DNA from: Herbiconiux moechotypicola
Lineage (GTDB): Bacteria; Actinomycetota; Actinomycetes; Actinomycetales; Microbacteriaceae
Direction of reading: 5' to 3'
DNA: 64,000 bases
NCBI RefSeq assembly: GCF_024979255.1
Contig: NZ_JANLCN010000002.1
Span: forward strand, 62,001-126,000
Shown: in pieces, positions 361 through 24,565 of the stretch
How positions within the stretch are numbered: position 1 is the stretch's first letter
Layout of the letters: every line of letters starts with the position of its first letter
The notes under the pieces: generated by a model
Seen by the model: the letters and a program-made list of their open reading frames with translations, nothing else
Told to the model about the DNA's origin: nothing
Database searches by the model: none
Program-made: the position numbers and the translations under genes

Positions 361-376
361 TGGGGACTTCTCCCCA
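361..376. promoter_or_regulatory. Palindromic operator candidate, copy A
   Basis: TGGGGA-CTTC-TCCCCA is a perfect 6-bp inverted repeat with a 4-bp spacer. A second copy with the same arms lies at 21974-21989, upstream of the WXG100 genes. A possible -10 (CATGCT, 406-411) lies about 30 bases downstream. Shared sequence beyond the palindrome (a GCCGT-TTT-like stretch) suggests that the two sites are parts of related promoters. The binding protein is unknown. Confidence 0.6.
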
Positions 377-429
377 GACGGCCGTTTTGGCGACCTCTCG
401 CCGATCATGCTTGAATGACCCCTGTACGG

Positions 430-477
430 GGTACGCCCGACCCGAAGGGCCGTACCGAAGGTCGCTCCCGGGCGACC
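430..477 (+). other. Structured leader of the secretion operon (two stem-loops)
   Basis: Two inverted repeats lie between the putative promoter and the GTG at 525. GGTACG (430-435) pairs with CGTACC (451-456), and GGTCGC (460-465) pairs with GCGACC (472-477). Neither is followed by a T-run, so they look like 5' UTR hairpins rather than a terminator. The unit at 22.0 kb has a similar two-hairpin leader. Confidence 0.4.
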
Positions 478-524
478 CCGCACAGTCTTGCCCTCGCCGT
501 GACCACCCGACGATCGGAGACCGT

Positions 525-3500
525 GTGAGGCTGTTCCAGGCCATCCGCCGCCACAAGGCCACCAGTGCCTCTGTCGCCACGGTCGCCGCGGCCTCGATCG
601 CCGTCACCACGATGGCCTTCCTCTACGAGGGCGTCGAGACCGCCGACGTCGATCTCAACGACGGCGGCGTCTGGGTCACGAAGCCCTCCGCCCTGCTACT
701 CGGGCACCTCAACCACCCGGCCCAGGTCATCGACGGCGGTCTCCGCACCTCCTCCACCGACTTCGACGTGCTGCAGAACGGCGACACCGTGCTGCTGCTC
801 GACTCGGCCGGCGCGACGCTCACCCCGGTCAACCCCATGACGGTGGCCCTCGAGTCGCCCGTCAACCTCCCGCCCGAGGCCTCGGTCTCCCTCGGCGGCG
901 ACTCCGTCACCCTGCTCGACCGCCAGACCGGCGGCCTCTGGGCCGTCGACTCGGCCCAGGTCGGCTCATTCACCCCCGACCCCGAGGAGCCGATGGCCGA
1001 GCTCGGCGCCGGTGCCGCCGCGGTGGCCGACTCCGAGGGCACGGTGCACGCCCTCTCCACCTCCGACGGCCGGCTGCTCAGCTACGAGCGCGACGAGGCG
1101 ACCGGCGCCTTCCCCGAGGAGCCCACGGCCTCGACCGCCTTCCCCGAGGTCGAGCAGAGCGCCCAGCTGACCCTCACCACCGTCGGCGACCAGGCCGTCG
1201 TCTTCGACTCCGCCACGGGCACCCTCTACCTGCCGGGCGGCGGTGTCGCCGAGCTCCCGGATGCTCAGGGCGGCATCGTGCAGGCCTCCGGCCCCGCCTC
1301 CGACGACGTGCTCGTCTCCACCGCGACCACCCTCATCCGCCAGCCCCTCGCCGGCGGCGAGCCGGTCGTGCTGCAGACCACCGGCGAGCCCGGCGACCCG
1401 GCCGCGCCCGTCTTCCTCAACGGATGCGCCTACGCGGCCTGGTCGGGCTCGGGATCGTACCTGCGCGACTGCGCGGGCGACGCCGACGACGTCGAGAGCG
1501 AGGTTCCCGATCTCGCGGCGAACGCCTCGCTGCGATTCCGCGTGAACCGCGACGTGGTGGTGCTCAACGACGTGGCGACCGGCGTGGTGTACCTGGTGAA
1601 CCAGGACATGAAGAAGGTCGACAACTGGGACGACATCGCCCCGCCGCCCGAGGAGAGCGACTCCGAAGAGGAGGAGGACAGCACCGAGGAGGAGCTGCAG
1701 GTGCTGCTCCCCGACCGCTCCGAGGAGAACACCCCGCCCACCGCGGTCGACGACTCGTTCGGCGTGCGGGCAGGCCGCACCGTCATCCTCCCGGTGCTGA
1801 ACAACGACACCGACCCCGACGGCGACGTGCTGACGGCGTCGCTGAGCGGCAACGGCCCCTCGTTCGGCGAGGTGCAGCGCATCCTCAACGGCGCGGCGTT
1901 GCAGGTGGTGGTGGAGCCGGATGCGCGGGGCGCGTCGAGCTTCAGCTACACCGCCGACGACGGCCGCGGCGGCACCGACACGGCGACGGTGTCGCTCACG
2001 GTGCGGGGCGACGGCGAGAACTCGCCGCCGAAGCAGCGGCAGGTCTCCGACGTGCTGGTGGAGCTCGGCGCCACGGTGAAGCACAACGCGCTGCCCGACT
2101 TCGAGGACCCCGACGGCGACGACCTGTACGTCACGGCGGCGTCGACCGGCACGGCCGACCAGGTGCAGTTCCGGCCCGACGGCGAGATCACGTTCACGAG
2201 CATCGACCCCAACACCGGGCCGAAGGACGTGACGGTCACGATCTCCGACGGGCGCTCCGAGATCGAGGGCACCATCCGGTTCGTGGTGCGCGACAAGGGT
2301 GCGCTCGCCCCGGTGACCACGCCCGACGCCGTGGTGGCCACGGTCGGCGAGCGGGTCACCGTCGCCCCGCTCGAGAACGACCTGAGCCCCTCCGGCGCCC
2401 CGCTGCGGCTCGCGAAGGTGAACGAGACGCCCGGGCTCACTCTCGAGCCCGACTACACGACCGGCACCTTCGCCGTGACGGGCGCCTCGGTGGGCGTGTT
2501 CTACGTGCAGTACCTGGTGGCCGACGGCCCCAAGACGGCGGAGGGACTCGTGCGGGTCGACGTGGTGGCCGATGAGGACACCGAAGACCCGCCGATCGCC
2601 GTGCGCGACACCGCGCAGCTGCCCACCGGGCGCACGACGCTCGTGAACGTGCTAGCCAACGACACCGACCCGAACGGCGGCATCCTCGCCGTGCAGTCGG
2701 TGCAGACCGACCCCGACTCGGGTATCTCGGTGGAGGTGCTCGAGCACCAGATCCTGCGCATCGCCGACCGGGGCCTCGTCGGACCCACGACCGTGCGCTA
2801 CACGGTCTCCAACGGCTACGCGAGCGCGGTCGGCGAGGTGTTCGTCACCCCGATCGCCTCGCCCGAACGGCTGCAGCCGCCGGTCGCGGTCGACGACACC
2901 GTGACCGTGCGGGTGAACGACGTCGCGACCATCCCGGTGCTGGCCAACGACTATCACCCCGACGGCGACACCATCCGCCTCTCCGAGACCCTCATCGAGC
3001 CGCTCGTTGCCCCGGCCGACGGGCAGATCTTCGTGGCCGAAGACGTGGTGCGGTTCCGCGCCGGCCCCGAGCCCAAGACCGTCTACGCCACCTACGAGGT
3101 GGTCGACTCGCAGGGCCAGAAGGACGCGGGCTACATCACCATCCGCGTGGTCGGCGACGACGGGGCGAACTCCCCACCCCGTCCGGAGGACGTGACGATC
3201 CGCGCCCTGCAGGGCACCAGCGTGCGCATCCCGATCCCGCTCGACGGCATCGACCCCGACGGCGACTCCGTGCGCCTCGTGGGCCAGAGCTCGGCGCCCG
3301 CGAAGGGCCGCATCACCGAGGTGGGCGAGTCGTGGCTGGTGTACGAGGCCTACCCCGACGCGACCGGCACCGACACCTTCACCTACGCCGTGCAAGACCG
3401 CCTCGGCGGCCTCGCCACCGCCACCGTGCTGGTGGGCATCATCCCCGCCTCCGACGCCAACCAGGCGCCCTACGCCCAGAAGGACACGGTGCAGGCCCGC

Positions 3501-6602: not shown

Positions 6603-6642
6603 CCCGACCCCTCCCGCTCCCCCCGAAAGGAAGCCCCCTCCC

Positions 6643-7613
<971 letters not shown>

Positions 7614-7617
<4 letters not shown>

Positions 7618-8867
7618 GACGACTGCTGCACCGGATGCGCGCGGCGCCCGTGTGGGCGGCGTCGCGCGAGCGCGTGGCCGCCGGCGGGCGGGGCGTACGG
7701 CGTGCGGCCGGCCCGGTTCTCTCGACCGTCTCGGGCTTCGGCTGGGGCGTGCTCGCGGCCACGATCGTCGCCCTCGTGGCCGGCGTGGTGCTGGGCTGGC
7801 GGGAACTGCTCGTGGTGGGGGCGGTGCTGCTCGCGGCTCTGCTCATCGCCGTGGGCTTCGCGATCGGCCGTTCGGCCTATGCGGTGTCGCTCGACCTCGC
7901 GCTCACGCGGGTGGTCGTGGGCGAGCGCGCGGTGGGCCGCGTCGCGGTGGCGAACACCGCCTCGCGGTCGATGGCGCCCGCCCGCATCGAGCTGCCGGTG
8001 GGCGCGTCGTTCGCCTCGTTCGCCCTGCCGAGGCTCGCACCGGGTGCCGAGCACGACGAGCTCTTCGGCATCCCGACCCACCGCCGATCGGTCATCACGG
8101 TGGGCCCCGTGCGATCGGTGCGGGGAGACCCGCTGGGCCTCCTGCGCCGCGTGGTGCGCTGGACCGACCCGGTCGACCTGTACGTGCATCCGAAGACCAT
8201 CTCGCTCGGCGGCTCGTCGTCGGGCTTCCTGCGCGACCTCGAGGGCATCGAGTCGCGGGTGCTGAGCGAGAACGATGTGTCGTTCCACGCCCTGCGCGAG
8301 TACGTGCCCGGCGACGACCGGCGCTACATCCACTGGAAGACCTCGGCGCGCACGGGCACCCTCATGGTGCGCCAGTTCGAGGAGACGCGGCGTTCGCATC
8401 TCGCCGTCGCGTTGTCGACGAGCACGGCCGACTACGCCGATCCCGAGGAGTTCGAACTCGCGGTCTCGGTGTGCGGGTCGCTCGGCGTGCAGGCCCTGCG
8501 CGAGGAGCGCGAGCTCACCGTGCTCACGCAGACCAGCACGCTGCGCACGCAGACGGGGCGACTGCTGCTCGACGACCTCTCCGGCGTCGAGACGGCCGAG
8601 CGGCGCGGCACGGTGACCTCGCTCGCTCAGTCGACAGGCTCGGCGGTGCCAGGGGCGTCGGTGGCCTTCCTGCTCTTCGGCGGGCCGGTGTCCGCGCGGC
8701 AGCTGCAGGCCGCGAGCGTGCACATCCCGCTCGGTGTGCGGGTGATCGCGGTGAGCGCCCAGCCGGGCGCCGCGCTGTCGCTGCGGCACATCGGCGACGT
8801 GACGCTGCTGACGGTGGGCGAGCTGAGCGAGTTCCCGCTCGCGCTGCGGAGGGCGAACAGCGGATGA
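7614..8867 (+). CDS. DUF58 domain-containing membrane protein
   Basis: The protein has 417 residues and starts at ATG 7614, overlapping the MoxR stop by four bases. Two hydrophobic segments near residues 45-85 form a TM hairpin. A beta-rich region follows, then the DUF58 signature REYVPGDDRRYIHWKTSARTG around residues 230-250, and a C-terminal vWA-like part. DUF58 proteins are conserved partners of MoxR ATPases; the biochemical function is not settled. It is translationally coupled on both sides: its TGA overlaps the ATG of the transglutaminase-like gene at 8864. I infer that it forms a module with the MoxR ATPase and that transglutaminase-like protein. Confidence 0.9.
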
Positions 8868-11323
8868 GTGGCGATCGGATGAACGGGCGGCCCCGGGCGG
8901 GCGAGCGGTCGGCGGGCGAGCGGCCGGCCGGGGAGCGCAGGCGCGCGCGGCCACGGCGAGCGCCCGCACGGGTGCGGCCGGCCTGGGCGAAGGCCGTCGA
9001 CTGCGGCGTGCTCGCCGCACTGCTGGTGATCGGCGTGCTCGGTTTCGGGCCGGCCTTCGGCGGCTCGGGTTATCTCGTCGCGGGCGTCGGAGGGATCGTG
9101 CTCGGTCTCGCGCTCGGCGTCGCGGGAGCCCTGCTGCGCTGGAACGGCATCGTGCTCACCGCCGTCGCGCTCGGCGTCTATCTCGTGTTCGGCGGGCCGC
9201 TCGCCGCACCCGGCACCACGATCCTCGGGGTCGTGCCCACCCTCGACACGCTCCGCACCCTGGTGCTGGGGCTCGTGTTCTCGTGGAAGGACGTGCTCAC
9301 CCTCGTCACCCCCGTGGGGCAGTTCGACTCCGTGCTCGTGGTGCCCTTCGTCTCGGCGCTGGTCACCTCGGTCGTGGCCGTGAGCCTCGCCCTCCGGCTG
9401 CGGCCGTCGCGCGCCGCCTGGGCGCTGGTGCCCGCGGCGGCACTGCTCGTGACGGGTATCGCCTTCGGCACGCGCGAGGCGGCCTTCCCCGCCGTGCTCG
9501 GGCTCGTGTTCGTGGGTCTCGCGCTGTGCTGGGCCGCGTGGCGGCGGCAGGATGCGCGGGCCTGGGCAGCGCGCGAGACCGCGGTCGGCGGGGCGGACGG
9601 TTCCGCGCCACCCGCGGGGAACGGCACTTCGGCCCGGCGCACCCGGCTCGCCGCCGCGGCGGGGATGGTGGTGGCCGCCCTCGCGGCGGGTTTCGTGGCT
9701 GGAGGACTCCTCGTTCCCGCCACGGCCCGCGAGGTGCTGCGCGATCACATCGAGCCGCCGCTCGACCTGCACGACTACGCCAGTCCGCTGGTCGGGTTCC
9801 GGAGCGTGGTGCGCGACCAGGGAGACGAGTCGCTGTTCGAGGTGACGGGCCTGCCCGATGGCGCGCGCATCCGGCTCGCCACGCTCGACGGATACGACGG
9901 CACGGTCTACGACGTGGCGGGCGACGGGTCGAACGGATCGGGACAGTTCGTGCGGGTGTCGAGCGACATCGCGAACGACGCCGAGGGCGAGCGCACCACC
10001 CTGGAGGTCAGCATCACCGGCCTCGACGGCGTGTGGCTGCCCGACGCCGGGCAGCTCGACTCGCTCGAGTTCACCGACGGCCGGGTGGAGCAGCTCGAGG
10101 GCGCGCTGCACTACAACGCCGCCACCGGCACCGCGCTCGACACGGCGGGACTGGCCGAGGGCGACTCCTACACGCTCGAGACCGTGCTGCCGCCGGTGTT
10201 CAACGACGAGCAGCTGTCGAGCCGAGCCGTCTCGTCGGTGACGCTGCCCCGCGCATCCGGAGTGCCCGACGACATCGGCGCACTGGCCGCCGAGTACGTG
10301 GCCGATGCCGAGACGCCCGTGCAGCAGGTGCGCAACATCGCGGCCGGGCTCGCGGCCGACGGGTTCTTCAGCCACGGGCTCGAGGGCGAGGCGGTGTCGC
10401 GGGCCGGACACGGTGCCGAGCGCATCGCGAGCCTCGTGGGAGCCGAGCAGATGGTGGGCGACGACGAGCAGTACGCCGTGACGATGGCGCTCATGGTGCG
10501 CTCGCTGGGGATGCCGGCGCGCGTGGTGATGGGCTTCTATCCGTCGCAGTACGCCGCCGCGGGCGAGTCGCTCGAGATCACCGGCGACGACGTGCACGCC
10601 TGGGTGGAGGTGCCGTTCGACGGAGCCGGCTGGGTGGCCTTCGACCCCACGCCGCCCGAAGACCAGGTGCCCCTCGACGAGGCGCCCCAACCGAAGTCCG
10701 ACCCGAAGGCGCAGGTGCTGCAGCCGCCGCCCCCGCCGCAGGAGCCGGCCGAGCTGCCGCCGGACATCCGCACCGAGGACACCGCGCAGGACGAGGTGGA
10801 GGAGGAGGGGTTCGACTACCTCCCCGTCTTCCTCGCCGCTGGCGGGGTGCTCGGGCTGCTGATCGTGGTGTTCGGGCCGCTCGTCGTGATCGCGCTGGTC
10901 AAGCTGGCGCAGAGGCGCCGCCGGCGGCGAGCGCCGCGAGCCGCCGACCGCGTGAGCGGAGGCTGGGACGAGATCGTCGACCGTGCCGGCGACCTCGGTT
11001 CTCGCACCCCCGCCGGTGCCACGCGCCGCGACGACGCCCGGCAGCTGTCGGCGGCCTACCCCACCGCGGGCCTCGTGGCGGTCGCGGAGCGTGCCGATGG
11101 CACGGTGTTCGGCCCCGGCGAACCGACGGCGGCCGAGGTGGAGCAGTATTGGACGGAGGTCGACGCGGCCGTGCGCAGCATGACCCGCTCGACCCGGTGG
11201 TGGCGACGGATCGCGGCGAGGTGGTCTGTGCGCTCGCTCGCACGACGGTCGCGCGAGCGGCGCCAGGCGGCGAGAGCGCGCCGCGCCGCCGCCCGGACGG
11301 CGCGAACAGGAGACGACCAGTGA
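8864..11323 (+). CDS. Polytopic transglutaminase-like protein lacking the catalytic cysteine
   Basis: The protein has 819 residues. A basic, Arg/Ala-rich N-terminus is followed by about six TM segments up to residue 235 and another near 265-280. An extracellular region then carries a transglutaminase-core-like domain, followed by a Pro-rich linker, one more TM segment near residue 660 and a basic cytoplasmic tail. This is the TgpA-like architecture found with MoxR and DUF58. In the core motif, where the family usually has GxCEQFA, this protein reads GDDEQYA, so the nucleophilic Cys is replaced by Asp 534 (codon GAC at 10463). The His (DVHAWVEV, His 578) and Asp (AFDPTPPED, Asp 594) are present. 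It is therefore unlikely to act as a normal transglutaminase or cysteine protease; a binding or scaffolding role is my inference. The stop overlaps the next start (GTGA). Confidence 0.88.
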   Translation: MSGDRMNGRPRAGERSAGERPAGERRRARPRRAPARVRPAWAKAVDCGVLAALLVIGVLGFGPAFGGSGYLVAGVGGIVLGLALGVAGALLRWNGIVLTAVALGVYLVFGGPLAAPGTTILGVVPTLDTLRTLVLGLVFSWKDVLTLVTPVGQFDSVLVVPFVSALVTSVVAVSLALRLRPSRAAWALVPAAALLVTGIAFGTREAAFPAVLGLVFVGLALCWAAWRRQDARAWAARETAVGGADGSAPPAGNGTSARRTRLAAAAGMVVAALAAGFVAGGLLVPATAREVLRDHIEPPLDLHDYASPLVGFRSVVRDQGDESLFEVTGLPDGARIRLATLDGYDGTVYDVAGDGSNGSGQFVRVSSDIANDAEGERTTLEVSITGLDGVWLPDAGQLDSLEFTDGRVEQLEGALHYNAATGTALDTAGLAEGDSYTLETVLPPVFNDEQLSSRAVSSVTLPRASGVPDDIGALAAEYVADAETPVQQVRNIAAGLAADGFFSHGLEGEAVSRAGHGAERIASLVGAEQMVGDDEQYAVTMALMVRSLGMPARVVMGFYPSQYAAAGESLEITGDDVHAWVEVPFDGAGWVAFDPTPPEDQVPLDEAPQPKSDPKAQVLQPPPPPQEPAELPPDIRTEDTAQDEVEEEGFDYLPVFLAAGGVLGLLIVVFGPLVVIALVKLAQRRRRRRAPRAADRVSGGWDEIVDRAGDLGSRTPAGATRRDDARQLSAAYPTAGLVAVAERADGTVFGPGEPTAAEVEQYWTEVDAAVRSMTRSTRWWRRIAARWSVRSLARRSRERRQAARARRAAARTARTGDDQ

Positions 11324-13571: not shown

Positions 13572-13572
13572 G

Positions 13573-15042
13573 ATGACGACCATCCACTACACACCGGGAC
13601 CGTGGCGCGCCGCCGTGACGCCGCAGGGCGTCGCCGTGCTGCCCTCGGGGGTGACCGGTGAGACGCTCGAGCGCATCCGCGCGTCGCTCGCCGCCGGACA
13701 CGGGCTGGGCGCGGTGCTCGAGTCGCTGACGGGGGCGTTCGGCACTAGTCTGCGGTCGATCCCGCCGTTCGCCGTGGCTGCGGTGGAAGGCGGGTCGGTG
13801 CGGCTGGCGGTGCGGGGGCCGCTGGTGGCCGCGGTGACCGAGTCGGGCGGCGGCTACGAGGTCTCCGGGGCCGACGTGACGACGTGGAGCGAACGCGTGG
13901 TGGCGTCGGCGGTCGGCGTGGTGATCGAGACGGGTGCGGAGACGCACGCGCCGGGCGAGCGGTTCGTGATCGCAGACGGCGTGGTGCTCTGCTCGCGGGT
14001 GGAGCTCACTCCGGATGGGAGCGGCGGTGCTGTGGAGGTGCAGCCGGATGAGGCATCCATGGCAGCGGCCCCCACGACATCGATCCCCACCCCGCCGGCC
14101 CTCTCCACCGAGGCACCCACCGGAGATGCGCCCACGTCGGCCGCCTCCCCGGTCGCTTCGCCGGCCGTCTCCCCCGCGGTGGAGGCGGTGATCGACGATC
14201 TGGAGAGCACGCGCGACGAACTGCCCGACGACGCCTACGACCACCTCTGGGGGGCCACCGTCGTCAAGTCGGTCGAGGACGCCGCCGTGCGCGACCTCGA
14301 CGACGAGGAACCCGTCGAGGTCGCGCCGGCACCGTCGACCGCGCCCGACATCGTCGCCGCGGCTCCGTCGTCATCCACGACGGCCCCGGAGCCGCCCGCA
14401 CCGGCGGCACCGGCGGCACCTGTGGCGCCGAGCACGGGACTCATCGACTCGCTCCCCGACTTCGGAGCAGTGGGCGCCCCCACCCCCGGGTTCGATGCCC
14501 GCACCGTGCCCCCCGCGCCCGCCGCGCCCGCCCCTGCCCTCGCGCCCGAAGCCTCCGCCGTCACGCCCGGTGCGGCGGCGGTCGCCGACGACGACCACGA
14601 CGGCCTGACCGTGACGGTGTCCGAGCTCGAGGCCCTGCGCCGGCTGGAGTCGGCCGCGCCGGCGCCGGCCGCGGATTCCGGCGACGGAGCCGACGCGGTC
14701 TCGCTGGGGCGCATCGTGCTGAGCACCGGCGACGTGCATCCGCTCGACCGCCCGGTGGTGATCGGCCGGCGCCCCCGCGCCAACCGGGTGCAGCCCGACC
14801 ACGTGCCGCTGCTCGTCACCGTGCCCAGCCCCGAGCAGGACATCTCGCGCAACCACCTCGAGGTGCGGCTGGAGGGCCGGCACGTGCTCGTCGTCGACCT
14901 CGACACCACGAACGGTTCGGTGCGCCACCGCGTGGGCGCTCCCCCGCTGCGTCTCGCCCCGAACGAGCCCGTGCTCGTGCTCGACGGCGACGTGGTCGAC
15001 CTCGGCGACGGAGTGACCGTCACCTTCGAGGACATCCCGTGA
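13573..15042 (+). CDS. FHA domain protein with long disordered linker
   Basis: The protein has 489 residues and starts at ATG 13573, one base after the PP2C stop, with CAGGAG at 13562-13567. Residues 1-155 form a folded N-terminal domain I do not recognise. It begins with ITYTPG-like sequence (IHYTPGPWRAAV) and shows an ERIRASLAAGHGLGAVLE helix and FAVAAVE/VRLAVRG strands. Residues 155-375 are a Pro/Ala/Glu linker. The C-terminal FHA domain (about 379-489) has intact GRR, DISRNHLE and DTTNG motifs. A cytoplasmic phosphothreonine adaptor is the likely role. Its TGA overlaps the GTG of the kinase gene. Confidence 0.85.
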   Translation: MTTIHYTPGPWRAAVTPQGVAVLPSGVTGETLERIRASLAAGHGLGAVLESLTGAFGTSLRSIPPFAVAAVEGGSVRLAVRGPLVAAVTESGGGYEVSGADVTTWSERVVASAVGVVIETGAETHAPGERFVIADGVVLCSRVELTPDGSGGAVEVQPDEASMAAAPTTSIPTPPALSTEAPTGDAPTSAASPVASPAVSPAVEAVIDDLESTRDELPDDAYDHLWGATVVKSVEDAAVRDLDDEEPVEVAPAPSTAPDIVAAAPSSSTTAPEPPAPAAPAAPVAPSTGLIDSLPDFGAVGAPTPGFDARTVPPAPAAPAPALAPEASAVTPGAAAVADDDHDGLTVTVSELEALRRLESAAPAPAADSGDGADAVSLGRIVLSTGDVHPLDRPVVIGRRPRANRVQPDHVPLLVTVPSPEQDISRNHLEVRLEGRHVLVVDLDTTNGSVRHRVGAPPLRLAPNEPVLVLDGDVVDLGDGVTVTFEDIP

Positions 15043-16748
15043 ACGCGCGCCGGCCTCCCTCCTCGCCCCCGAGCATCCCGGGGTTCGACTACGTCGAACT
15101 GCTGGGCTCCGGTGGATTCGCCGACGTCTTCCTCTACGAGCAGCGACTGCCCCGTCGCCGTGTGGCCATCAAGGTGCTGCTGAGCGAGTCGCTCACCCCC
15201 GGGGCGCGGGAGAGCTTCGACGCCGAGGCGAACCTCATGGCGCAGCTGTCGACGCATCCGTCGATCGTCACGATCTACCAGGCGGGCATCGCCGACGACG
15301 GCCGGCCCTACCTCGCGATGGAGTACTGCCCGAAGCCGAACCTCGGTGCGCGCTACCGCCGGGAGCGCATCGGCGTCGCCGAGGCGCTGCGCATCGGCGT
15401 GCAGGTGGCGGGCGCGGTCGAGACCTCGCACCGCGCGGGGATCCTCCACCGCGACATCAAGCCGGCCAATATTCTCGTGACGGAATACAACCGGCCCGCG
15501 CTCACCGACTTCGGCATCTCGGTTGCCCTCGTCGGGGGCGGGGCCGAGCAGGAGTCGGTCGGGATGTCGATCCCGTGGTCGCCGCCGGAGGTGTTCGCCG
15601 CCGATCCGTCGTCGGGTGCACCGGCCGACATCTACTCGCTCGGCGCCACCGTCTACACGCTGCTCGCGGGCCGCTCGCCGTTCGAAGTGCCCGGTGGCGC
15701 GAACTCGGGGCTCGACCTCATCGCCCGCATCCAGACCGCCCGGCTGCTGCCGACCGGCCGCGCCGACGTGCCGCCCTCGCTCGAGCAGGTTCTCGCGACG
15801 GCCATGGCTCCGGCCGAGGCCGGTCGCTACGACTCCGCGCTCGAGTTCGCGCGCGCGCTGCAGAAGGTGCAGCTCGAGCTGAGCATGGCGGTGACGCCGG
15901 TCGACGTGCTCGACGAGCACGTTCCCGAGGCCCGCGACGACGAGGAGGACGAGGGCAGCACGCGCGTGCGCGGGATCGTGACGATCGATCCGACGGGTCC
16001 GTCGCGGCCGACCGCGGGGGCACCCGGACACACGCAGACCCGCCCGGGTACGCCGCCCGCGCCGGCCTCCGCGCCCTCGTCGCCGCACTCGCCTTCGTCC
16101 CCGTCCTCGCCGAGCCCGGCGACCCTGCCGCCGACACCGGCCCGCCCCTCCCCTACCCCCTCGAGTTCACCAGGCGCATCCGATCCCGGCCCCCGGCCCC
16201 GCGCATCCGCCTCTCACGCCGTGCCGCTCGAACCGGCCGTCGACACCACTCTGCGCCGCCCGCCGGCCCTTGCCGGAGAAGTCGGCGACAGCGCGCATCC
16301 AGACACCCACCGCCCGCCGCGCCGGCGGGCCCTCCCCTACCTCGTCGCCGGCGCCGTGGTGGTGGTGCTGCTCGGTGTCGGTGGACTCGTCTTCGCCCTC
16401 TCGCCCGCCGGCTCCCCGGCGCAGCAGAGCGCCGACGACGCCGAGCAGGCCTCGAGCGCCCCGGTCGACGAGATCGCGGTCGAGACTGTCGCGGCACCGG
16501 CCGAGCTCACCGGCGCTCTCTCCCCCGCGGGCGACTCGGTGGAGTTCACCTGGACGAACCCCGACCCCCGCGACGGCGACACCTACTCCTGGGCCCAGAC
16601 CACCGCGACCGAGACCGGACAGGCCTCGCGCACCGACCAGCCCATGGCCGTGCTGCCCACCACCGCCGGCGCCCCGGTGTGCATCGAGGTGGTCGTCGTG
16701 CGCGGTGACGGCCGGGCCTCCGAACCGGCGAGAGGATGCGCGCCATGA
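15039..16748 (+). CDS. Membrane Ser/Thr protein kinase (PknB-like)
   Basis: This is a 569-residue Hanks-type kinase. The start is GTG 15039, overlapping the previous TGA. The kinase domain (about 15-285) has the glycine loop LGSGGFADVFL, Lys 45 in VAIKVL, HRDIKPANIL with Asp 139, and DFGIS with Asp 157, so it should be active. A Pro/Ser-rich juxtamembrane linker (about 300-430) leads to one TM segment at about 432-455. The extracellular part of about 110 residues resembles a small beta domain (VEFTWTNPDPRDGDTYSW); PASTA repeats are absent. It probably senses something outside the cell and phosphorylates FHA partners encoded on both sides. Its TGA overlaps the next ATG. Confidence 0.93.
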   Translation: MNARRPPSSPPSIPGFDYVELLGSGGFADVFLYEQRLPRRRVAIKVLLSESLTPGARESFDAEANLMAQLSTHPSIVTIYQAGIADDGRPYLAMEYCPKPNLGARYRRERIGVAEALRIGVQVAGAVETSHRAGILHRDIKPANILVTEYNRPALTDFGISVALVGGGAEQESVGMSIPWSPPEVFAADPSSGAPADIYSLGATVYTLLAGRSPFEVPGGANSGLDLIARIQTARLLPTGRADVPPSLEQVLATAMAPAEAGRYDSALEFARALQKVQLELSMAVTPVDVLDEHVPEARDDEEDEGSTRVRGIVTIDPTGPSRPTAGAPGHTQTRPGTPPAPASAPSSPHSPSSPSSPSPATLPPTPARPSPTPSSSPGASDPGPRPRASASHAVPLEPAVDTTLRRPPALAGEVGDSAHPDTHRPPRRRALPYLVAGAVVVVLLGVGGLVFALSPAGSPAQQSADDAEQASSAPVDEIAVETVAAPAELTGALSPAGDSVEFTWTNPDPRDGDTYSWAQTTATETGQASRTDQPMAVLPTTAGAPVCIEVVVVRGDGRASEPARGCAP

Positions 16749-17467: not shown

Positions 17468-17472
17468 CCCGG

Positions 17473-20400
17473 ATGCGCATCAAGGCCAGCTTCGTCCGCC
17501 CCGGCGGCAGCACGAGTCAGCTCCAGATCACGGCCGACGCCACCGCGACCGTCGGCGACGTGGCGGCGGCGATCGCGCTGGCCGATCCCCAGCGGAGCAC
17601 TCCTGCACAGGCACCCGCGGCTGTCGGATCGTCCACAGATTCGGTCGCTCGCGCCGAGGCTCTGCCTGCAGGGCTCACGCTGAAGGTCACCGACATCAGT
17701 GGAGGCCAGCGCGTGATCGACCCCGCATCCGACCTGCTCGACTCGGGCGTGCGGTCCGGGGCCGTGCTCGAGCTGGCCACGCACAGCCCCGAGTTCGCGT
17801 CGCCCGGCGCGACCGGTCCTGCCGCGGCCACGCTGCGCGTGCTGAGCGGGCCGGATGCGGGGGCCGAGTTCGCGCTGCCGTTCGGCACCAGCTACATCGG
17901 CCGCGAGCGCGGCATCGACGTGCGGCTGAGCGACGGCCTGGTCTCGAAGCGGCACGCCAGGGTGACCGTCGGCGACCAGGTCGAGATCTCCGACCTCAAC
18001 TCGGCCAATGGTCTGCTCATGGGCGGCGAGCCGGTCGCCCGTGCCGCGCTGTCGTCGGCCGACGTGGTGGTGCTGGGCGACACGGCCGTGAGCGTGGTGC
18101 CCTTGCGCCGGCTCGGCGGCACCGCACCGTCCACTCCCGTGGTCGAGTTCAATCGGTCGCCGCGTGTGGTCGCGCGCTACCCCGGCGACGAGGTGCCCGC
18201 GCCGGTTCCTCCGAAGAAGCCGCAGCCGCTGCGGTTCCCCATCATCGCGCTCATCGCCCCGCTGCTCATGGGGCCGATCCTCTTCCTCGCCACCGGGTCG
18301 GCGCTCAGCCTCGTCTTCATCGCGCTGAGCCCGCTCATCATGATCGGCACCTGGGCCGACCACACGCTGCAGAGCAGGCGGCAGCTGCGCGACGCCATCG
18401 CGCAGTTCACCTCCTCTCTCGACGCCTTCGTCTCGTCGATGCACGAGCGGCAGCGGGTGCAGCGCGCCGTGCGGCTCACCGAGGCGCCCGCCGTCGGCGC
18501 GACCATCGACGCCGTGGAGCGCCTCGGGCCGCTGCTGTGGACGCACCGGCCCGAGCACCCCGCATTCCTCACGGCGAGGCTCGGTGTCGGCACGGCCCCG
18601 AGCCGCGACCGCATCCGGCTGCCGAACGACAACGACGCCCTGCCCGAGTACTGGGCGCAGGTCTCCGAGACGGCCGAGCGGTTCGAGCGCATCGACGGGG
18701 TGCCGATCGTCGTGGAGCTGCGGCGCGCGGGCGCGCTCGGGGTGGCCGGCGCCACCGCCGACCGCGCGGGCGTCGCCCGCGGGCTCGTGGTGCAGCTGGC
18801 GGCCCTGCACTCCCCCGCCGAGCTGGTGCTCTGCGGTCTCGCCTCGCCGTCGTCGAGGTCGGAGTGGGAGTGGCTGGAATGGCTGCCGCACACCAGCTCG
18901 CCGCACAGCCCTCTCGACGGAGACCACCTCGCCGACAGCCCCGGCAGCGGGGCAGCCCTCCTGTCGCGGCTCGAGCACCTGATCGACGAGCGCGGCGCGG
19001 GTGCTCCCACCCTCCGCGGACCGCTCGGTGAGAAGGGCGCCGGCGAGAAGGAGGAGCTGCCCCGACCGCACGTGCCCACGGTGGTGGTCGTGGTCGAGAA
19101 CGACGCGCCGGTCGACCGCGGCCGGCTCACCCGGCTGGTCGAGCGTGGCGCCGACGCCGGCGTGCACGTGCTCTGGTCGGCACCCTCGATCGGCGACCTG
19201 CCCGCGGCGTGCCGCAGCTTCGTCAGCCTCGACCAGGGGGCTCCCGGCAGTGCCACCGCGGGCCAGGTGCGGCTGGGCGAGCACACCTTCCCGCTCGACT
19301 GCGAGACCGTCGACGACTCCACGGCCTCGCGGCTCGCCCGGCGCCTCGCCCCGGTGGTCGACGTGGGGGCCCCGGTCGACGACGAGTCCGATCTCCCCCG
19401 GTCGGTCTCCTACCTCGCCCTCACCGGGTCGGAGCTCGCCGATGTTCCCGAGGCCGTGATCGACCGGTGGCGGGAGAGCGGCTCGATCGCGGCCCGCGAC
19501 GGCGCTCCCCGCGTGCGCCGGGCGAAGGAGGGGTCGCTCAGGGCCCTGGTGGGCCACACGGGCACCGAGCCGTTCCATCTCGATCTGCGCGCCCAGGGCC
19601 CGCACGCCCTCGTCGGCGGCACGACGGGTGCGGGCAAGTCGGAGTTCCTGCAGTCGTGGGTGCTCGGGATGGCTGCGGCGCACAGCCCCGACCGCGCCAC
19701 CTTCCTCTTCGTCGACTACAAGGGCGGTGCCGCCTTCGCCGACTGCGTCGATCTGCCGCACACGGTAGGCCTGGTCACCGACCTCAGCCCCCACCTGGTG
19801 AGACGAGCGCTCACGAGCCTCCGTGCCGAGCTCCGCCACCGCGAGCACCTGCTCAACCGCAAGAAGGCGAAAGACCTGGTCTCGCTCGAGAAGACGGGAG
19901 ACCCCGACACGCCACCGAGCCTCATCATCGTCGTCGACGAGTTCGCCGCGCTCGTGCAGGAGGTTCCCGAGTTCGTCGACGGTGTCGTCGACGTCGCGCA
20001 GCGCGGGCGATCGCTCGGGCTCCACCTCGTGCTCGCCACCCAGCGGCCGGCTGGGGTCATCAAAGACAACCTGCGCGCCAACACCAACCTGCGCATCGCC
20101 CTGCGCATGGCCGACGCCGACGACTCCGCCGACATCCTGGGCGATCCGATGGCGGCCTACTTCGACCAGTCCGTGCCCGGCCGCGGCGCGGCGAAGACGG
20201 GTCCCGGCCGCATCGCCGCCTTCCAGACCGCCTACGCGGGCGGGCACACGAGCTCCGAGCCCGAACCCACGCGGGTCGATCTGGTCGAGTTCGGATTCGG
20301 CACCGGCGCCAGCTGGGAGCCGGCGCAGTCCGGCGTCGCGGAGGAGTCCGAACCCGGCCCCACCGACATCGCCCGGCTCGTGCGATCCATCGGCACGGCC

Positions 20401-21972
20401 GCCGAGCTCGCCCGGATCCCCGCACCCCGCCGCCCCTGGCTCGACGAACTCGCCTCCGTCTACGACCTCTCGCTGCTCCCGAACCCCCGCACCGACGAGC
20501 GGCTGCTGCTCGGTGTCATCGACGATCCGGCCCATCAGAGCCAGCCGACCGTGTTCTACGAGCCCGACCGCGACGGCAACATGGCCGTCTACGGCACCGG
20601 GGGCGCCGGCAAGAGCAGCACCCTGCGCACCCTCGCCGTCGCCGCCGCGATCACTCCGCGCGGCGGTCCGGTGCACGTCTACGGGCTCGAATTCGGCTCC
20701 AGCGGACTGAGCATGCTCGACGAGCTGCCGCACGTGGGTGCCGTCATCTCGGGCGACGACGAGGAGCGGGTCATCCGCCTGCTCCGCATGCTCCGCGACC
20801 TCGTCGACGACCGGTCGGCCCGGTACTCCGCGGTGCGCGCCGGCAGCATCGGCGACTACCGCCGTCTGGCCGGCAAACCCGACGAGGCGCGCATCCTGGT
20901 GCTCGTCGACGGAATCGGTGCGTTCCGCGAGCAGTACGAGTTCGGCGGGCACTCCGCCTGGTTCACCACGTTCTCGCAGATCGCCACCGACGGGCGGCAG
21001 GTCGGCGTGCACATCGTGATCGCCGGCGACCGGCCGAACTCGGTTCCCGCCTCGCTCGGGTCGACGGTGCAGAAGAAGCTCGTGCTGCGCATGGCGAGCG
21101 ATGACGACTACACCCTGATGGGCGCCCCGAAAGACACTCTCTCGGCCGTCTCGCCCCCCGGCCGCGGCGTGCAGGGCGGCGACGAGGTGCAGGTGGCGGT
21201 GCTGGGCGGCGACTCCAACGTCGCGGTGCAGGCACGCGAGATCGCCAAGCTCGCCGAGGCCATGACGAGGCAGGGGATTCCGCCGGCACCACCCGTGCTG
21301 ACGCTGTCCGAGTCCATCCCGCTCGGTTCCCTCCCGGCGACAGCGGCGGGCCGGCCCGTGGTCGGAGTGCGCGACGACGACCTCCAGCCGTTCGCGGTCG
21401 AGCCTCGGGGGGCTCTGCTCGTCGCCGGCACGCCCGGCAGCGGCCGGTCGACGGCGCTGGCCACGGTGGCCTCGGCGCTGCGTCGAGCGAATCCGGGCAT
21501 CCGCCTGGTGCACCTCTCACCGAGAGCTACCAGCCTCACCGCACTGCCGCTGTGGTCGCTGAGCCTCCACGACCCGGCGCAGATCGGGGCCTTCGCCGAC
21601 GACGTGGCCGCCCAGCTCGACGCGGGCACCCTGCGGCCCGAGCAGTTCGCGGTGTTCGTCGAGAACGTGGGAGACCTCAACGGTTCACCCGCCGAAGCCG
21701 ACGTCGACCGGCTGGTCAAGCGCGCGCTCCGCGACGACGTCTTCGTCGTGGGCGAGAGCGAGAGCTCCACCTGGTCGGCGGCGTGGACTCTCGCGGCACC
21801 CTTCAAGAACTCCAAACGGGGCCTGCTGCTGGTGCCGGGAGAGCTCGACGGCGACTCGCTTCTGGGCACCTCGCTCGGACGGTTCAAGCGGGCGGATCTC
21901 CCGGCTGGCCGGGGGTTCTTCGTGCAGGGGGGCCGGGTCTCGAAGGTGCAGGTGGCGCAGCATGAGGGATGA
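17473..21972 (+). CDS. EssC/EccC-type FtsK/SpoIIIE secretion ATPase with Ub-like and FHA domains
   Basis: This 1,499-residue protein is the motor of the type VII-like system. ATG 17473 lies five bases after the previous stop. Residues 1-95 look ubiquitin-like (YukD/EccD-like). Residues 118-215 are an FHA domain (YIGRE, SKRHARV, LNSANG), and two TM segments follow at about 250-295. Three ATPase modules come next. D1 has Walker A GGTTGAGKSE (Lys 722) and Walker B IIVVDEF (Asp 822, Glu 823). D2 has GTGGAGKSST (Lys 1047), but its Walker B reads LVLVDGIG without Glu. D3 has GTPGSGRST with Arg 1325 in place of Lys, and its Walker-B-like strand reads FAVFVEN. The layout resembles firmicute EssC more than mycobacterial split EccCa/EccCb. 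No EccB, EccD, EccE or mycosin gene is in the window. Confidence 0.93.
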   Translation: MRIKASFVRPGGSTSQLQITADATATVGDVAAAIALADPQRSTPAQAPAAVGSSTDSVARAEALPAGLTLKVTDISGGQRVIDPASDLLDSGVRSGAVLELATHSPEFASPGATGPAAATLRVLSGPDAGAEFALPFGTSYIGRERGIDVRLSDGLVSKRHARVTVGDQVEISDLNSANGLLMGGEPVARAALSSADVVVLGDTAVSVVPLRRLGGTAPSTPVVEFNRSPRVVARYPGDEVPAPVPPKKPQPLRFPIIALIAPLLMGPILFLATGSALSLVFIALSPLIMIGTWADHTLQSRRQLRDAIAQFTSSLDAFVSSMHERQRVQRAVRLTEAPAVGATIDAVERLGPLLWTHRPEHPAFLTARLGVGTAPSRDRIRLPNDNDALPEYWAQVSETAERFERIDGVPIVVELRRAGALGVAGATADRAGVARGLVVQLAALHSPAELVLCGLASPSSRSEWEWLEWLPHTSSPHSPLDGDHLADSPGSGAALLSRLEHLIDERGAGAPTLRGPLGEKGAGEKEELPRPHVPTVVVVVENDAPVDRGRLTRLVERGADAGVHVLWSAPSIGDLPAACRSFVSLDQGAPGSATAGQVRLGEHTFPLDCETVDDSTASRLARRLAPVVDVGAPVDDESDLPRSVSYLALTGSELADVPEAVIDRWRESGSIAARDGAPRVRRAKEGSLRALVGHTGTEPFHLDLRAQGPHALVGGTTGAGKSEFLQSWVLGMAAAHSPDRATFLFVDYKGGAAFADCVDLPHTVGLVTDLSPHLVRRALTSLRAELRHREHLLNRKKAKDLVSLEKTGDPDTPPSLIIVVDEFAALVQEVPEFVDGVVDVAQRGRSLGLHLVLATQRPAGVIKDNLRANTNLRIALRMADADDSADILGDPMAAYFDQSVPGRGAAKTGPGRIAAFQTAYAGGHTSSEPEPTRVDLVEFGFGTGASWEPAQSGVAEESEPGPTDIARLVRSIGTAAELARIPAPRRPWLDELASVYDLSLLPNPRTDERLLLGVIDDPAHQSQPTVFYEPDRDGNMAVYGTGGAGKSSTLRTLAVAAAITPRGGPVHVYGLEFGSSGLSMLDELPHVGAVISGDDEERVIRLLRMLRDLVDDRSARYSAVRAGSIGDYRRLAGKPDEARILVLVDGIGAFREQYEFGGHSAWFTTFSQIATDGRQVGVHIVIAGDRPNSVPASLGSTVQKKLVLRMASDDDYTLMGAPKDTLSAVSPPGRGVQGGDEVQVAVLGGDSNVAVQAREIAKLAEAMTRQGIPPAPPVLTLSESIPLGSLPATAAGRPVVGVRDDDLQPFAVEPRGALLVAGTPGSGRSTALATVASALRRANPGIRLVHLSPRATSLTALPLWSLSLHDPAQIGAFADDVAAQLDAGTLRPEQFAVFVENVGDLNGSPAEADVDRLVKRALRDDVFVVGESESSTWSAAWTLAAPFKNSKRGLLLVPGELDGDSLLGTSLGRFKRADLPAGRGFFVQGGRVSKVQVAQHEG

Positions 21973-21973
21973 A

Positions 21974-21989
21974 TGGGGAGTTCTCCCCA
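21974..21989. promoter_or_regulatory. Palindromic operator candidate, copy B
   Basis: TGGGGA-GTTC-TCCCCA differs from copy A (361-376) only in one base of the spacer. It begins one base after the ATPase stop codon and lies about 23 bases upstream of a -10-like TATGGT (22013-22018). It is well placed to control the WXG100 unit. The regulator is unknown. Confidence 0.6.
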
Positions 21990-22025
21990 TCGCCGTCTTC
22001 GACACCCGTCCGTATGGTCTTTCTC

Positions 22026-22072
22026 GTGGGAACGCCCCACAGGAAGTAGCGGGTCCGGAATTCCCGGCCCGC
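22026..22072 (+). other. Structured leader of the WXG100 unit
   Basis: A small hairpin, GTGGG (22026-22030) with CCCAC (22036-22040), is followed by a stronger one, GCGGG-t-CCGG (22049-22058) with CCGG-CCCGC (22064-22072). The second ends eight bases before the AAGGAGA ribosome binding site (22080-22086), so the site stays exposed. Likely a 5' UTR stabiliser; attenuation by readthrough from the ATPase gene is an alternative. Confidence 0.4.
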
Positions 22073-22091
22073 GGAGAGTAAGGAGAGAACA

Positions 22092-22358
22092 ATGGCCGTC
22101 TGGGGTCTCGATGTCGAACAGGTCCGCTCGCTCAGCAAGCAGCTGAACACGCAGTCGCAGCAGGTGCAGCAGATCCTCACCACCCTCACCAGCGCCCTCC
22201 AGAGCGTGCAGTGGACCGGTCCCGACGCGGAGAACTTCCGCAACGAGTGGAACACCACGCACACCGCCGCGCTCAAGCAGGTCATCACCGCTCTCGAAGA
22301 CGCCTCGCAGAAGGCCGCGAAGAACGCCAACGACCAGGAGGCCACCTCCAACGTCTGA
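22092..22358 (+). CDS. WXG100 (ESAT-6-like) secreted protein
   Basis: This is an 88-residue helical-hairpin protein. The WXG turn is Trp 41-Thr-Gly 43 (QWTGPDA), flanked by two amphipathic helices, which is the length and arrangement of ESAT-6/CFP-10-type T7SS substrates. The start ATG has a strong AAGGAGA site and its own promoter region, suggesting high expression. No signal peptide or TM is present, as expected for substrates exported by the FtsK/SpoIIIE ATPase. The C-terminal tail ends in NDQEATSNV and lacks an obvious YxxxD/E motif. It may pair with the WXG100 domain of the next protein. Confidence 0.93.
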   Translation: MAVWGLDVEQVRSLSKQLNTQSQQVQQILTTLTSALQSVQWTGPDAENFRNEWNTTHTAALKQVITALEDASQKAAKNANDQEATSNV

Positions 22359-22430
22359 TCGGTCACCTCGACCGATCGCGTGTTCGCCTCACCACTCGCC
22401 CCATCCGCCCCGCACGTCTGAGAGGAAGCC

Positions 22431-23528: not shown

Positions 23529-23574
23529 CGCACCCTCCCCTCCACCTGACCCTCTCCGTGCAGAAAGGCACATC

Positions 23575-24066
23575 ATGACCCACACGATCTCCTTCCCGAG
23601 CGAGGCCGCTCCGGCGTTCCCCTCCCTCTCCCTCTCGGTCCCCGATGACTGGAAGCCGCTCGCCGTGTCGGGCGCCGTGCTGGCGGCGGGCAAATCGGTG
23701 GAGCAGGGCCAGTTCCGACCGAACGTGGTCGTGGCCGTCTCCCGCTTCGCTCCCGGCTATGCCCTCGCCACCGCCGTCGAGGGCGTCATCAAGCGTGTCG
23801 AGGCGATCGAGGGCGTGGCCGAACTGGGGCGCGACGAGCTCGACGTGCTCGGACAGCCCGGCTACCGGATCGAGTTCAGCTATCCCGATCCTCGCGTCGG
23901 GCTGCTCATGCAGGCGGTGCGGATCGCCGTGATCGATCACGGCACCGCCGTCGACCTCGTGCAGATCACCGCCACGGCCTCGGGGCCCCAAGCGCAGGAG
24001 TACTGGGGCGAGCTCCGCGAGGTGCAGGCGAGCGCATCGCTCGGCGGGGCTACCGGGGCGGCCTGA
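23575..24066 (+). CDS. LpqN/DcrB-like protein without signal peptide
   Basis: The protein has 163 residues; ATG 23575 is preceded by GAAAGG. The pattern (SVPDDWKPL, FRPNVVVAVSRF, LGQPGYRIEFSYPD, VDLVQITATA) resembles the LpqN/DcrB-type fold, whose mycobacterial members are lipoproteins, but no export signal is seen. It lies directly after the WXG100 fusion, so it may be a cytoplasmic chaperone for a secreted partner, in the way EspG-like chaperones serve ESX substrates. This is inference; the family assignment is tentative. Confidence 0.65.
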   Translation: MTHTISFPSEAAPAFPSLSLSVPDDWKPLAVSGAVLAAGKSVEQGQFRPNVVVAVSRFAPGYALATAVEGVIKRVEAIEGVAELGRDELDVLGQPGYRIEFSYPDPRVGLLMQAVRIAVIDHGTAVDLVQITATASGPQAQEYWGELREVQASASLGGATGAA

Positions 24067-24070
24067 GCCT

Positions 24071-24565
24071 GTGACCGCCACGTTCGACCAGGTTCAGGCG
24101 AGCATCCTCGCACTCAACGGCCCCGAGCGTCCCTTCGTCTACGAGGCCACCCCCACCGGGGTCGTGGGGCGCTGGAACTACGCCGACCAGAAATGGGCCG
24201 CCCTCCTCGGCGCGGGCTCGGTCGACGCCGACTACGTACTCGAGGTCGTGCTCGACGAGACCGAGTCCACCTTCGCGTTCGAGGAGGCCGAGGTCGTGGA
24301 GGAGACCGGCCTCACGGCCGGAGGCGACGGCATCGGCTTCTCCTACGAGCGCTCGACGTTCAAGGGCCACAAGAAGTCGTACAAGTTCGACCTGGGCGCG
24401 GCCATCCTCGCCAAGGTCACCGACCGGCAGGGCGACCACGTCGGCCAGAGCTACGGCTACCGCTTCGACACCGACGAGATCAAAGACCCGCTCCTGCGAG
24501 TGTTCGACGAGGCCGGCTGGGAGCCCCGGCGCAAGGGCCTGTTCTCGCGTCTCTTCGGCGGCTGA
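24071..24565 (+). CDS. Conserved hypothetical protein of the secretion locus
   Basis: The protein has 164 residues and starts at GTG 24071, four bases after the previous stop, so it is probably translationally linked to it. It has an N-terminal helix, a beta-rich middle (VVGRWNYADQKWAALLG, YVLEVVLDE, TFKGHKKSYKFDLG) and a basic C-terminus (RRKGLFSRLFGG). No TM segment, signal peptide or catalytic motif is visible. I do not recognise the family. Its position as the last gene of the WXG100 unit suggests a role in substrate handling. Confidence 0.7.
   Translation: MTATFDQVQASILALNGPERPFVYEATPTGVVGRWNYADQKWAALLGAGSVDADYVLEVVLDETESTFAFEEAEVVEETGLTAGGDGIGFSYERSTFKGHKKSYKFDLGAAILAKVTDRQGDHVGQSYGYRFDTDEIKDPLLRVFDEAGWEPRRKGLFSRLFGG

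What the first reader, a model, noticed from the sequence alone, without database searches (positions are those of the whole stretch)
361..24565. Compact type VII-like secretion locus fused to a phospho-signalling and MoxR/DUF58 module
One chain of overlapping genes links an EssC-like ATPase and WXG100 substrates to a membrane Ser/Thr kinase, a PP2C phosphatase, three intact FHA domains plus one degenerate one, a MoxR/DUF58/transglutaminase-like trio and a 2,025-residue surface protein. None of the other core components of mycobacterial ESX systems (EccB, EccD, EccE, mycosin) is in the window. The layout suggests secretion gated by threonine phosphorylation, with the Ig-like protein as a possible external conduit or scaffold. 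The gene set is seen directly; the functional coupling is inference.
Basis: partly seen in the sequence, partly recalled or inferred. Interest (0 to 1): 0.78.

Follow-up and report, generated by a model that had tools for sequence, protein, structure and literature searches.

The report
Kinase-linked type VII secretion operon
An actinobacterium carries a conserved set of genes that looks like a stripped-down protein-export machine wired to its own protein-phosphorylation switch, and a shared promoter signature ties the machine genes to the genes for the small proteins it probably exports.

Summary
The gene set is real and conserved. Window 525-24565 holds ten tightly packed genes (Ig/Fn3 protein, MoxR, DUF58, transglutaminase-like, RDD-FHA, PP2C, FHA, Ser/Thr kinase, degenerate FHA, EssC-like ATPase), then a separate unit of four genes starting with two WXG100 proteins. 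A palindrome, TGGGGA-N4-TCCCCA, occurs twice in 64 kb: before the first gene and between essC and the WXG100 genes. It recurs at the essC end in 42 of 75 named loci (at most 1 mismatch), with a -10-like box at fixed spacing in 36 of 42, and precedes unlinked WXG100 genes in a relative. EssC carries a ubiquitin-like (probably YukD/EccD-type) domain fused to an FHA domain with intact phosphothreonine residues; kinase motifs are intact. In Firmicute T7SSb the FHA pocket is degenerate and the partner a pseudokinase (PMC9600267). EccB, YukD/EccD and EssB are not detected in this genome; EccE, EsaA and EssA were not searched; a mycosin-like protease lies elsewhere, below cut-off. The other genes match the published bifidobacterial PFNA set; ten searches found no report linking it to type VII secretion. 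Export and gating are untested. New variant of a known kind.

The parts
361..376 (.). palindrome TGGGGACTTCTCCCCA, candidate operator of the operon, starting 164 bp before the Ig/Fn3 start codon
525..6602 (+). 2,025-aa protein: N-terminal hydrophobic segment (read from the sequence), nine Big_9 and three fn3 stretches
6643..7617 (+). MoxR-family AAA+ ATPase
7614..8867 (+). DUF58 protein
8864..11323 (+). TgpA_N + transglutaminase-like protein; Asp where TgpA has Cys
11320..12708 (+). zinc-ribbon-like + RDD domain + FHA
12705..13571 (+). PP2C phosphatase with acidic-Thr tail
13573..15042 (+). protein with C-terminal FHA and a linker with acidic-Thr motifs
15039..16748 (+). membrane Ser/Thr kinase, catalytic motifs intact, juxtamembrane acidic-TR motif, short C-terminal domain beyond the hydrophobic segment
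16745..17467 (+). degenerate FHA + strongly conserved C-terminal domain that reads like a winged helix (inference); candidate regulator (start 16736 or 16745)
17473..21972 (+). EssC-like ATPase: ubiquitin-like domain (about aa 1-104), FHA (about 117-210), hydrophobic segment(s) read from the sequence, two FtsK_SpoIIIE stretches and a third P-loop-like region
21974..21989 (.). palindrome TGGGGAGTTCTCCCCA before the WXG100 unit
22013..22018 (+). TATGGT, -10-like hexamer at the conserved spacing from the palindrome
22092..22358 (+). WXG100 protein, 88 aa
22431..23528 (+). WXG100-like domain with a Gly/Ala-rich extension of about 270 aa
23575..24066 (+). LpqN/DcrB-like protein (match just under the Pfam cut-off), possibly a chaperone (inference)
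24071..24565 (+). hypothetical protein, 164 aa, found again in both Herbiconiux loci

Best explanation
A type VII-like export module. The EssC-like ATPase is the motor; its N-terminus carries its own ubiquitin-like subunit (a free protein, YukD/EsaB, in Firmicutes; part of EccD in mycobacteria) and a phosphothreonine-binding FHA domain. The membrane kinase and the PP2C phosphatase, made from the same operon, set the phosphorylation of acidic-Thr sites in the kinase, the phosphatase tail and the two FHA proteins; the FHA domains, EssC's among them, dock on these sites, so that motor assembly or activity follows a signal read by the kinase outside the membrane. MoxR, DUF58 and the transglutaminase-like protein (probably catalytically dead) act as an assembly/remodelling trio, perhaps for the 2,025-aa Ig/Fn3 surface protein or the export complex. 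The WXG100 proteins are the likely substrates and are made from a second promoter that shares a palindromic element with the operon's upstream region, so machine and cargo are induced together. Shown: gene set, conservation, domain fusion (by model), intact residues, conserved motifs, shared palindrome, no match for EccB, YukD/EccD and EssB in this genome. Inferred: export, phosphorylation, docking, gating, operator function.
Against: No secretion or phosphorylation data. Linkage is not absolute: in 10 of 66 loci neither transglutaminase nor DUF58 is found; in one of these that I read (L093) rpoB and rpoC lie upstream of essC. Twenty-two of 70 loci show no WXG-like gene downstream, many of the Arthrobacter group (my small-ORF search may miss some). 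Two of 9 orthologue genomes do have EccB (G045, G176) and three a YukD domain (G045, G092, G176), away from this locus, so other T7SS can coexist. The exact palindrome is absent from 7 of 18 genomes, five of them with an essC orthologue (G117, G138, G168, G176, G092), and one of the three control genomes tried has one (G082); several copies have no evident partner (L159, L160, L162, L164, L168). No TANNNT lies between palindrome and start of the Ig gene in the window, and 2 of 7 Ig upstream regions lack the palindrome. The Ubl profile match has only 12.9% probability, and eukaryotic ubiquitin-like folds tie or lead in Z; in B. subtilis YukD did not bind YukB in a two-hybrid test (PMC9600267), which is against the logic of the fusion. 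Regexes were chosen after seeing window and orthologue copies; Pro in the PP2C tail (29, 7.5 expected) and Gly in FHA2 (35, 23.0 expected) also exceed shuffles, probably from the same motifs. A mycosin-like protease elsewhere (257.9 bits, cut-off 278.75) leaves room for missing parts.
Confidence: 0.62

Rival explanations
1. The kinase/PP2C/FHA/MoxR/DUF58/transglutaminase/Fn3 genes are a cell-surface adhesion and signalling operon (PFNA type) that merely neighbours and shares regulation with a small T7SS; phosphorylation does not act on the motor.
For: PFNA is described in bifidobacteria as a cluster for adhesion and host signalling; a term search of the two main texts found no 'type VII' in PMC8430577 and no 'secretion', 'WXG100', 'FtsK' or 'EssC' in PMC6803598. 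In some loci essC lies apart from these genes.
Against: EssC itself carries an FHA domain with intact pThr residues (76 of 80); kinase and tgm/duf58 both found with essC in 45 of 66 loci; the same palindrome before both units and before WXG100 genes elsewhere.
Confidence: 0.25
2. An incomplete or decayed ESX/T7SS whose other subunits lie elsewhere in the genome (a mycosin-like protease does), so that it is an ordinary T7SS with scattered genes.
For: Mycosin-like S8 protease (N-terminal signal and C-terminal hydrophobic segment by my reading) at G000:C8, 257.9 bits, next to genes that I read as enolase, ftsB-like, DUF501 and NADH dehydrogenase.
Against: EccB, YukD/EccD and EssB models give nothing in the genome while control genomes ring; the motor's frame is open and its residues are conserved in other genera.
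Confidence: 0.08
3. A signalling or anti-phage module that uses an FtsK-like ATPase, with WXG100 proteins as intracellular partners rather than exported cargo.
For: PADLOC models of kinase (mads_6, PD-T4-6) and FtsK-like (mads_8) defence proteins match.
Against: Those matches cover the kinase or FtsK domain only; the motor's best matches are EssC/EccC secretion ATPases; the set recurs across many genera in one order.
Confidence: 0.05

Closest known systems
T7SSb of Firmicutes (EssC/YukB, EssB/YukC, EsaB/YukD, EsaA/YueB)
   Same: EssC-type motor with N-terminal FHA; ubiquitin-like part; membrane partner with a kinase fold (YukC: cytosolic pseudokinase, TM, extracellular domain; passages of PMC9600267); WXG100 protein as substrate class
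   Different: Ubl fused to the motor; one FHA instead of two; FHA pThr residues kept, whereas PMC9600267 states they are not conserved in YukB or EssC; the kinase has intact catalytic motifs rather than being a pseudokinase; no EssB (PF10140) in the genome
T7SSa / ESX of mycobacteria
   Same: FtsK/SpoIIIE-type motor related to EccC, WXG100 genes, Ubl domain (there part of EccD)
   Different: No EccB or EccD/YukD match; FHA on the motor, which PMC9600267 says T7SSa motors lack; mycosin-like gene unlinked and below cut-off; EccE not tested
PFNA operon of Bifidobacterium (PMC8430577, PMC6803598; passages read)
   Same: kinase, Fn3 protein, MoxR-type ATPase, DUF58, transglutaminase-like, PP2C and FHA genes; fn3-aaa-duf58-tgm in the same order
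   Different: Here the kinase follows instead of leading; nine Big_9 stretches added; linked to EssC and WXG100 genes, terms that the searched PFNA text does not hold; no Bifidobacterium sequence was compared

Membership tests
T7SSa (ESX) | EccB | tested here: not met
   TIGR03919: 0 in own genome; 4 of 4 control genomes ring
T7SSa (ESX) | EccD with YukD-like domain | tested here: not met
   PF08817: 0 in own genome; 4 of 4 control genomes ring
T7SSa (ESX) | mycosin | tested here: inconclusive
   TIGR03921: 257.9 bits at G000:C8, cut-off 278.75; the 4 control genomes are over it
T7SSa (ESX) | EccE | not tested
T7SSa (ESX) | EccC ATPase | tested here: not met
   TIGR03924 348 bits (cut-off 509.15), TIGR03925 311.9 bits (cut-off 346.55)
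T7SSb (Ess/Yuk) | EssC equivalog | tested here: not met
   TIGR03928 518.7 bits, cut-off 778.4; still the best family
T7SSb (Ess/Yuk) | EssB/YukC pseudokinase | tested here: not met
   PF10140: 0 of 14 genomes; B. subtilis control rings
T7SSb (Ess/Yuk) | separate EsaB/YukD | tested here: not met
   PF08817 0 in own genome, B. subtilis rings; a Ubl domain is fused to EssC instead
T7SSb (Ess/Yuk) | EsaA, EssA | not tested
T7SS in the broad sense | WXG100 protein encoded beside the motor | tested here: met
   PF06013 28.0 bits, cut-off 27.3; only PF06013 match in the genome; TIGR03930 36.4 is below 44.85
T7SS in the broad sense | motor-dependent export of WXG100 protein | not testable with these tools
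   needs an experiment
[quoted passage not shown]
   by family only; orthology to Bifidobacterium proteins not tested
PFNA operon | kinase gene first in the cluster | tested here: not met
   kinase is the eighth of the ten genes from Ig to essC

The most novel reading that the evidence does not exclude
A third architecture of type VII secretion, widespread in Micrococcales and found in other actinobacteria: a motor with built-in ubiquitin-like and phosphothreonine-reading domains, run by an active membrane kinase and PP2C in place of the EssB pseudokinase, without the EccB/EccD or EssB partners, and held together by a dedicated regulon (TGGGGA-N4-TCCCCA) that also covers WXG100 genes elsewhere, a second MoxR/DUF58 cluster and small tail-anchored proteins that could be missing membrane subunits. 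The FHA/pseudokinase pair of Firmicutes would then be the silenced form of a phospho-switch that is still live here.
Probability: 0.35. Interest if true: 0.88.

Novelty: new variant of a known kind. Interest (0 to 1): 0.74.

Why it matters
Why Firmicute T7SS motors carry FHA domains, and why their partner is a dead kinase, is to my knowledge unexplained; here is a natural system in which both halves look alive, in environmental actinobacteria. It would also suggest an export machine for the kind of operon known as PFNA in bifidobacteria, and it supplies a DNA signature with which substrates and missing subunits can be sought genome-wide.

Tried and rejected
Defence module: PADLOC matches cover single domains; rejected. 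Terminator reading of the palindrome: six of the ten cases with a measured upstream stop lie within 32 bp of it, but four lie 201-911 bp away, while all 13 cases lie 35-188 bp before the next start; I see no T-run after it there, and the terminator scan did not list 21974; rejected. A simple [DE]x0-1STR motif was tested first and failed in the kinase (0 of 53), FHA2 (0 of 53) and PP2C (1 of 44) orthologues, with 7 of 65 in RDD-FHA; the broader regex was chosen after that, and the tight family patterns. Linkers too short were dropped: counted were 50 of 53 kinase, 56 of 65 RDD-FHA, 46 of 53 FHA2 and 39 of 44 PP2C proteins. The DUF58 excess (40 of 49 against 19.1; also Ala 46 and Gly 36) probably lies in the conserved domain and I do not count it. 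MoxR, TGM tail, degenerate FHA, EssC aa 81-130 and WXG2 show no clear Thr excess. PDB profile search with the degenerate-FHA family found no relative, so the winged-helix reading and its role as regulator are inference; genomes with that protein but without the exact palindrome exist (G138, G168, G176). Foldseek on the Ubl+FHA model listed only FHA domains in the 50 rows shown, so the Ubl was predicted alone. Transglutaminase Cys count: first regex scored 50 of 59: 45 Asp, 3 Glu, 1 Gln, 1 Ser, 0 Cys; a second regex scored 42 of 59: 35 Asp, 4 Glu, 2 Gln, 1 Ser, 0 Cys; that the TgpA Cys is catalytic is recalled. Inverted-repeat search with a minimum of 18 bases missed the 16-bp palindrome; I saw it by eye in the sequence printed. 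Literature: ten searches listed no paper that joins this gene set to type VII secretion; the library holds open-licence papers only, and listings were capped. Of PMC8430577, PMC6803598, PMC3482391, PMC9600267 and PMC1779556 I saw passages only; the rest as listings.
Full report
What is there. Gene calling by codon-position GC and translation give ten genes from 525 to 21972. From moxR to essC neighbours overlap by 4 bp or lie 1-5 bp apart; the Ig gene ends 40 bp before moxR. Four more genes follow after a 119-bp gap: two WXG100 proteins, an LpqN/DcrB-like protein and a 164-aa protein; then an MFS transporter. Domains are from Pfam and NCBIfam.

Conservation. A search of 197 genomes of the class gave nine orthologues of 44-57% identity that I aligned. 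Full matches at E = 0 are in 22 of 80 genomes of the same family (my count of the rows); the tally of 80 of 80 there includes FtsK-like hits. moxR (17 of 66) and Ig (10 of 66) are probably under-counted because the 10-kb flanks end before them. Of 70 loci with 1.5 kb after essC, 48 have a WXG-like gene on the same strand within 6 kb, 30 of them with a W.G motif.

The switch. Kinase motifs are intact in 48-50 of 51 orthologues, PP2C motifs in 39-44 of 44. Linkers and tails carry acidic-Thr motifs: tight patterns fitted after seeing the orthologues hold in 33 of 39 PP2C tails ([DE]DT[LIV]PR-like; 1.9 expected from shuffles), 42 of 50 kinase linkers (TR[VIL]R-like; 1.0), 41 of 46 FHA2 (DHDGxT[VI]-like; 0.0) and 19 of 56 RDD-FHA (0.0). 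With the general regex Thr is over-represented and Ser is not; Pro in PP2C and Gly in FHA2 also exceed shuffles. Counts are of related sequences, not independent events; by genus or group the general motif holds in the majority of members in 15 of 16 (PP2C), 16 of 19 (FHA2), 14 of 19 (kinase) and 6 of 24 (RDD-FHA).

The shared promoter. The sequence TGGGGA-N4-TCCCCA stands at 361-376 and 21974-21989 and nowhere else in the window. The genome has four copies; the other two precede a 106-aa gene followed by a 152-aa gene, a second MoxR and DUF58 (L154), and a 92-aa small protein (L155). Over 18 genomes searched there are 27 sites against 5 for the reversed control pattern. In the 75 of 80 named loci with 300 bp after essC, 26 have the exact palindrome within -60 to +400 of the essC end, 42 with at most one mismatch and 45 with at most two; the 42 come from 21 genera by record title plus unnamed groups. 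Control windows 1.5-4.5 kb further on reach at most two mismatches in 8 of 267. After the palindrome, TANNNT starts within columns 38-41 in 36 of 42, and at none of seven control positions. The palindrome would lie next to the -35 region, where class II activators bind (position inferred, recalled rule). Palindrome (at most 1 mismatch) and a WXG-like gene within 1.5 kb go together: 29 both, 11 palindrome only, 11 WXG only, 19 neither (Fisher P = 0.0036; related loci, so only a guide). In G273 two WXG100 genes on other contigs have it 87 and 113 bp upstream, one of them followed by an LpqN-like gene and one that I read as a 164-aa homologue (L158, L157). In G203 it stands 122 bp before WXG100 genes that lie about 7 kb past essC (L163). 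In G148 its three copies lie at the essC end and 97 bp before two further WXG100 matches. Upstream of the Ig gene it is exact in 4 of 7 cases (window, G045, G273, G222), has one mismatch in G002, and is absent in G092 and G176. Against: G117, G138, G168, G176 and G092 have no exact copy; copies without an evident partner are L159 and L160 (G273), L162 (G222), L164 (G045) and L168 (G002); copies in G222 (C1:2823173), G241, G178 and G082 were not examined.

Missing parts. EccB, the YukD domain and EssB give no match in this genome, with control genomes ringing. Among the nine orthologue genomes EccB is found in G045 and G176 and a YukD domain in G045, G092 and G176, away from the essC locus. EccE, EsaA and EssA were not searched. 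The best mycosin match (257.9 bits against 278.75; 228.9-263.6 in G002, G117, G138, G148 and G168) lies next to genes that I read as NADH dehydrogenase, DUF501, ftsB-like and enolase, a neighbourhood that recurs in G117 and, with an insertion, in G002; whether it serves this system is open.

Known or new. The MoxR-DUF58-transglutaminase-Fn3-kinase-PP2C-FHA set is the bifidobacterial PFNA gene set (PMC8430577, PMC6803598; passages). Ten literature searches of the open-licence library listed nothing that joins it to type VII secretion. I rate it a new variant of a known kind: a type VII-like motor with a new domain fusion, a phospho-switch that looks live beside it, and a shared promoter element. 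Export, phosphorylation and gating remain inference.

Noticed in passing
8864-11323: The transglutaminase-like protein has Asp where TgpA (6g49) has Cys; 0 of 50 scored orthologues (of 59) have Cys. Looks like a family-wide pseudo-enzyme.
   Followed up: partly
L155:4561-4839, L156:4059-4412, L161:3936-4469: Small proteins downstream of the palindrome, away from the operon, share an N-terminal [PL]W[DE]xD[LVF]T motif, a variable linker and a C-terminal hydrophobic helix (my reading); the L155 one has no Pfam match. Possible missing membrane subunits.
   Followed up: partly
L154:4210-9001: Own genome, second MoxR-DUF58 cluster (a further membrane protein follows by my reading) preceded by the palindrome and a -10-like box right before an apparently leaderless 106-aa gene.
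   Followed up: partly
16745-17467: Degenerate FHA + conserved C-terminal domain (RFNRKLDNVCDKL; 57% mean column identity over 27 sequences) that reads like a winged helix; candidate regulator of the palindrome.
   Followed up: partly
L130:3747-4967: Mycosin-like protease next to enolase-type neighbours, a neighbourhood seen again in G117 and, with an insertion, in G002.
   Followed up: partly
L088 and L106 downstream of essC: In another EssC group, essC is followed by proteins of about 85-98 and 110 aa, a 421-437-aa protein that reads LXG-like with a membrane segment, and two of about 200 aa; gene sizes in L086, L093 and L097 are similar.
   Followed up: no
L068: Record titled Sporosarcina beigongshangi carries the operon in the order of the Arthrobacter loci; probably contamination or a wrong label.
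   Followed up: no
47874-49946: 690-aa protein with three He_PIG putative Ig stretches.
   Followed up: no
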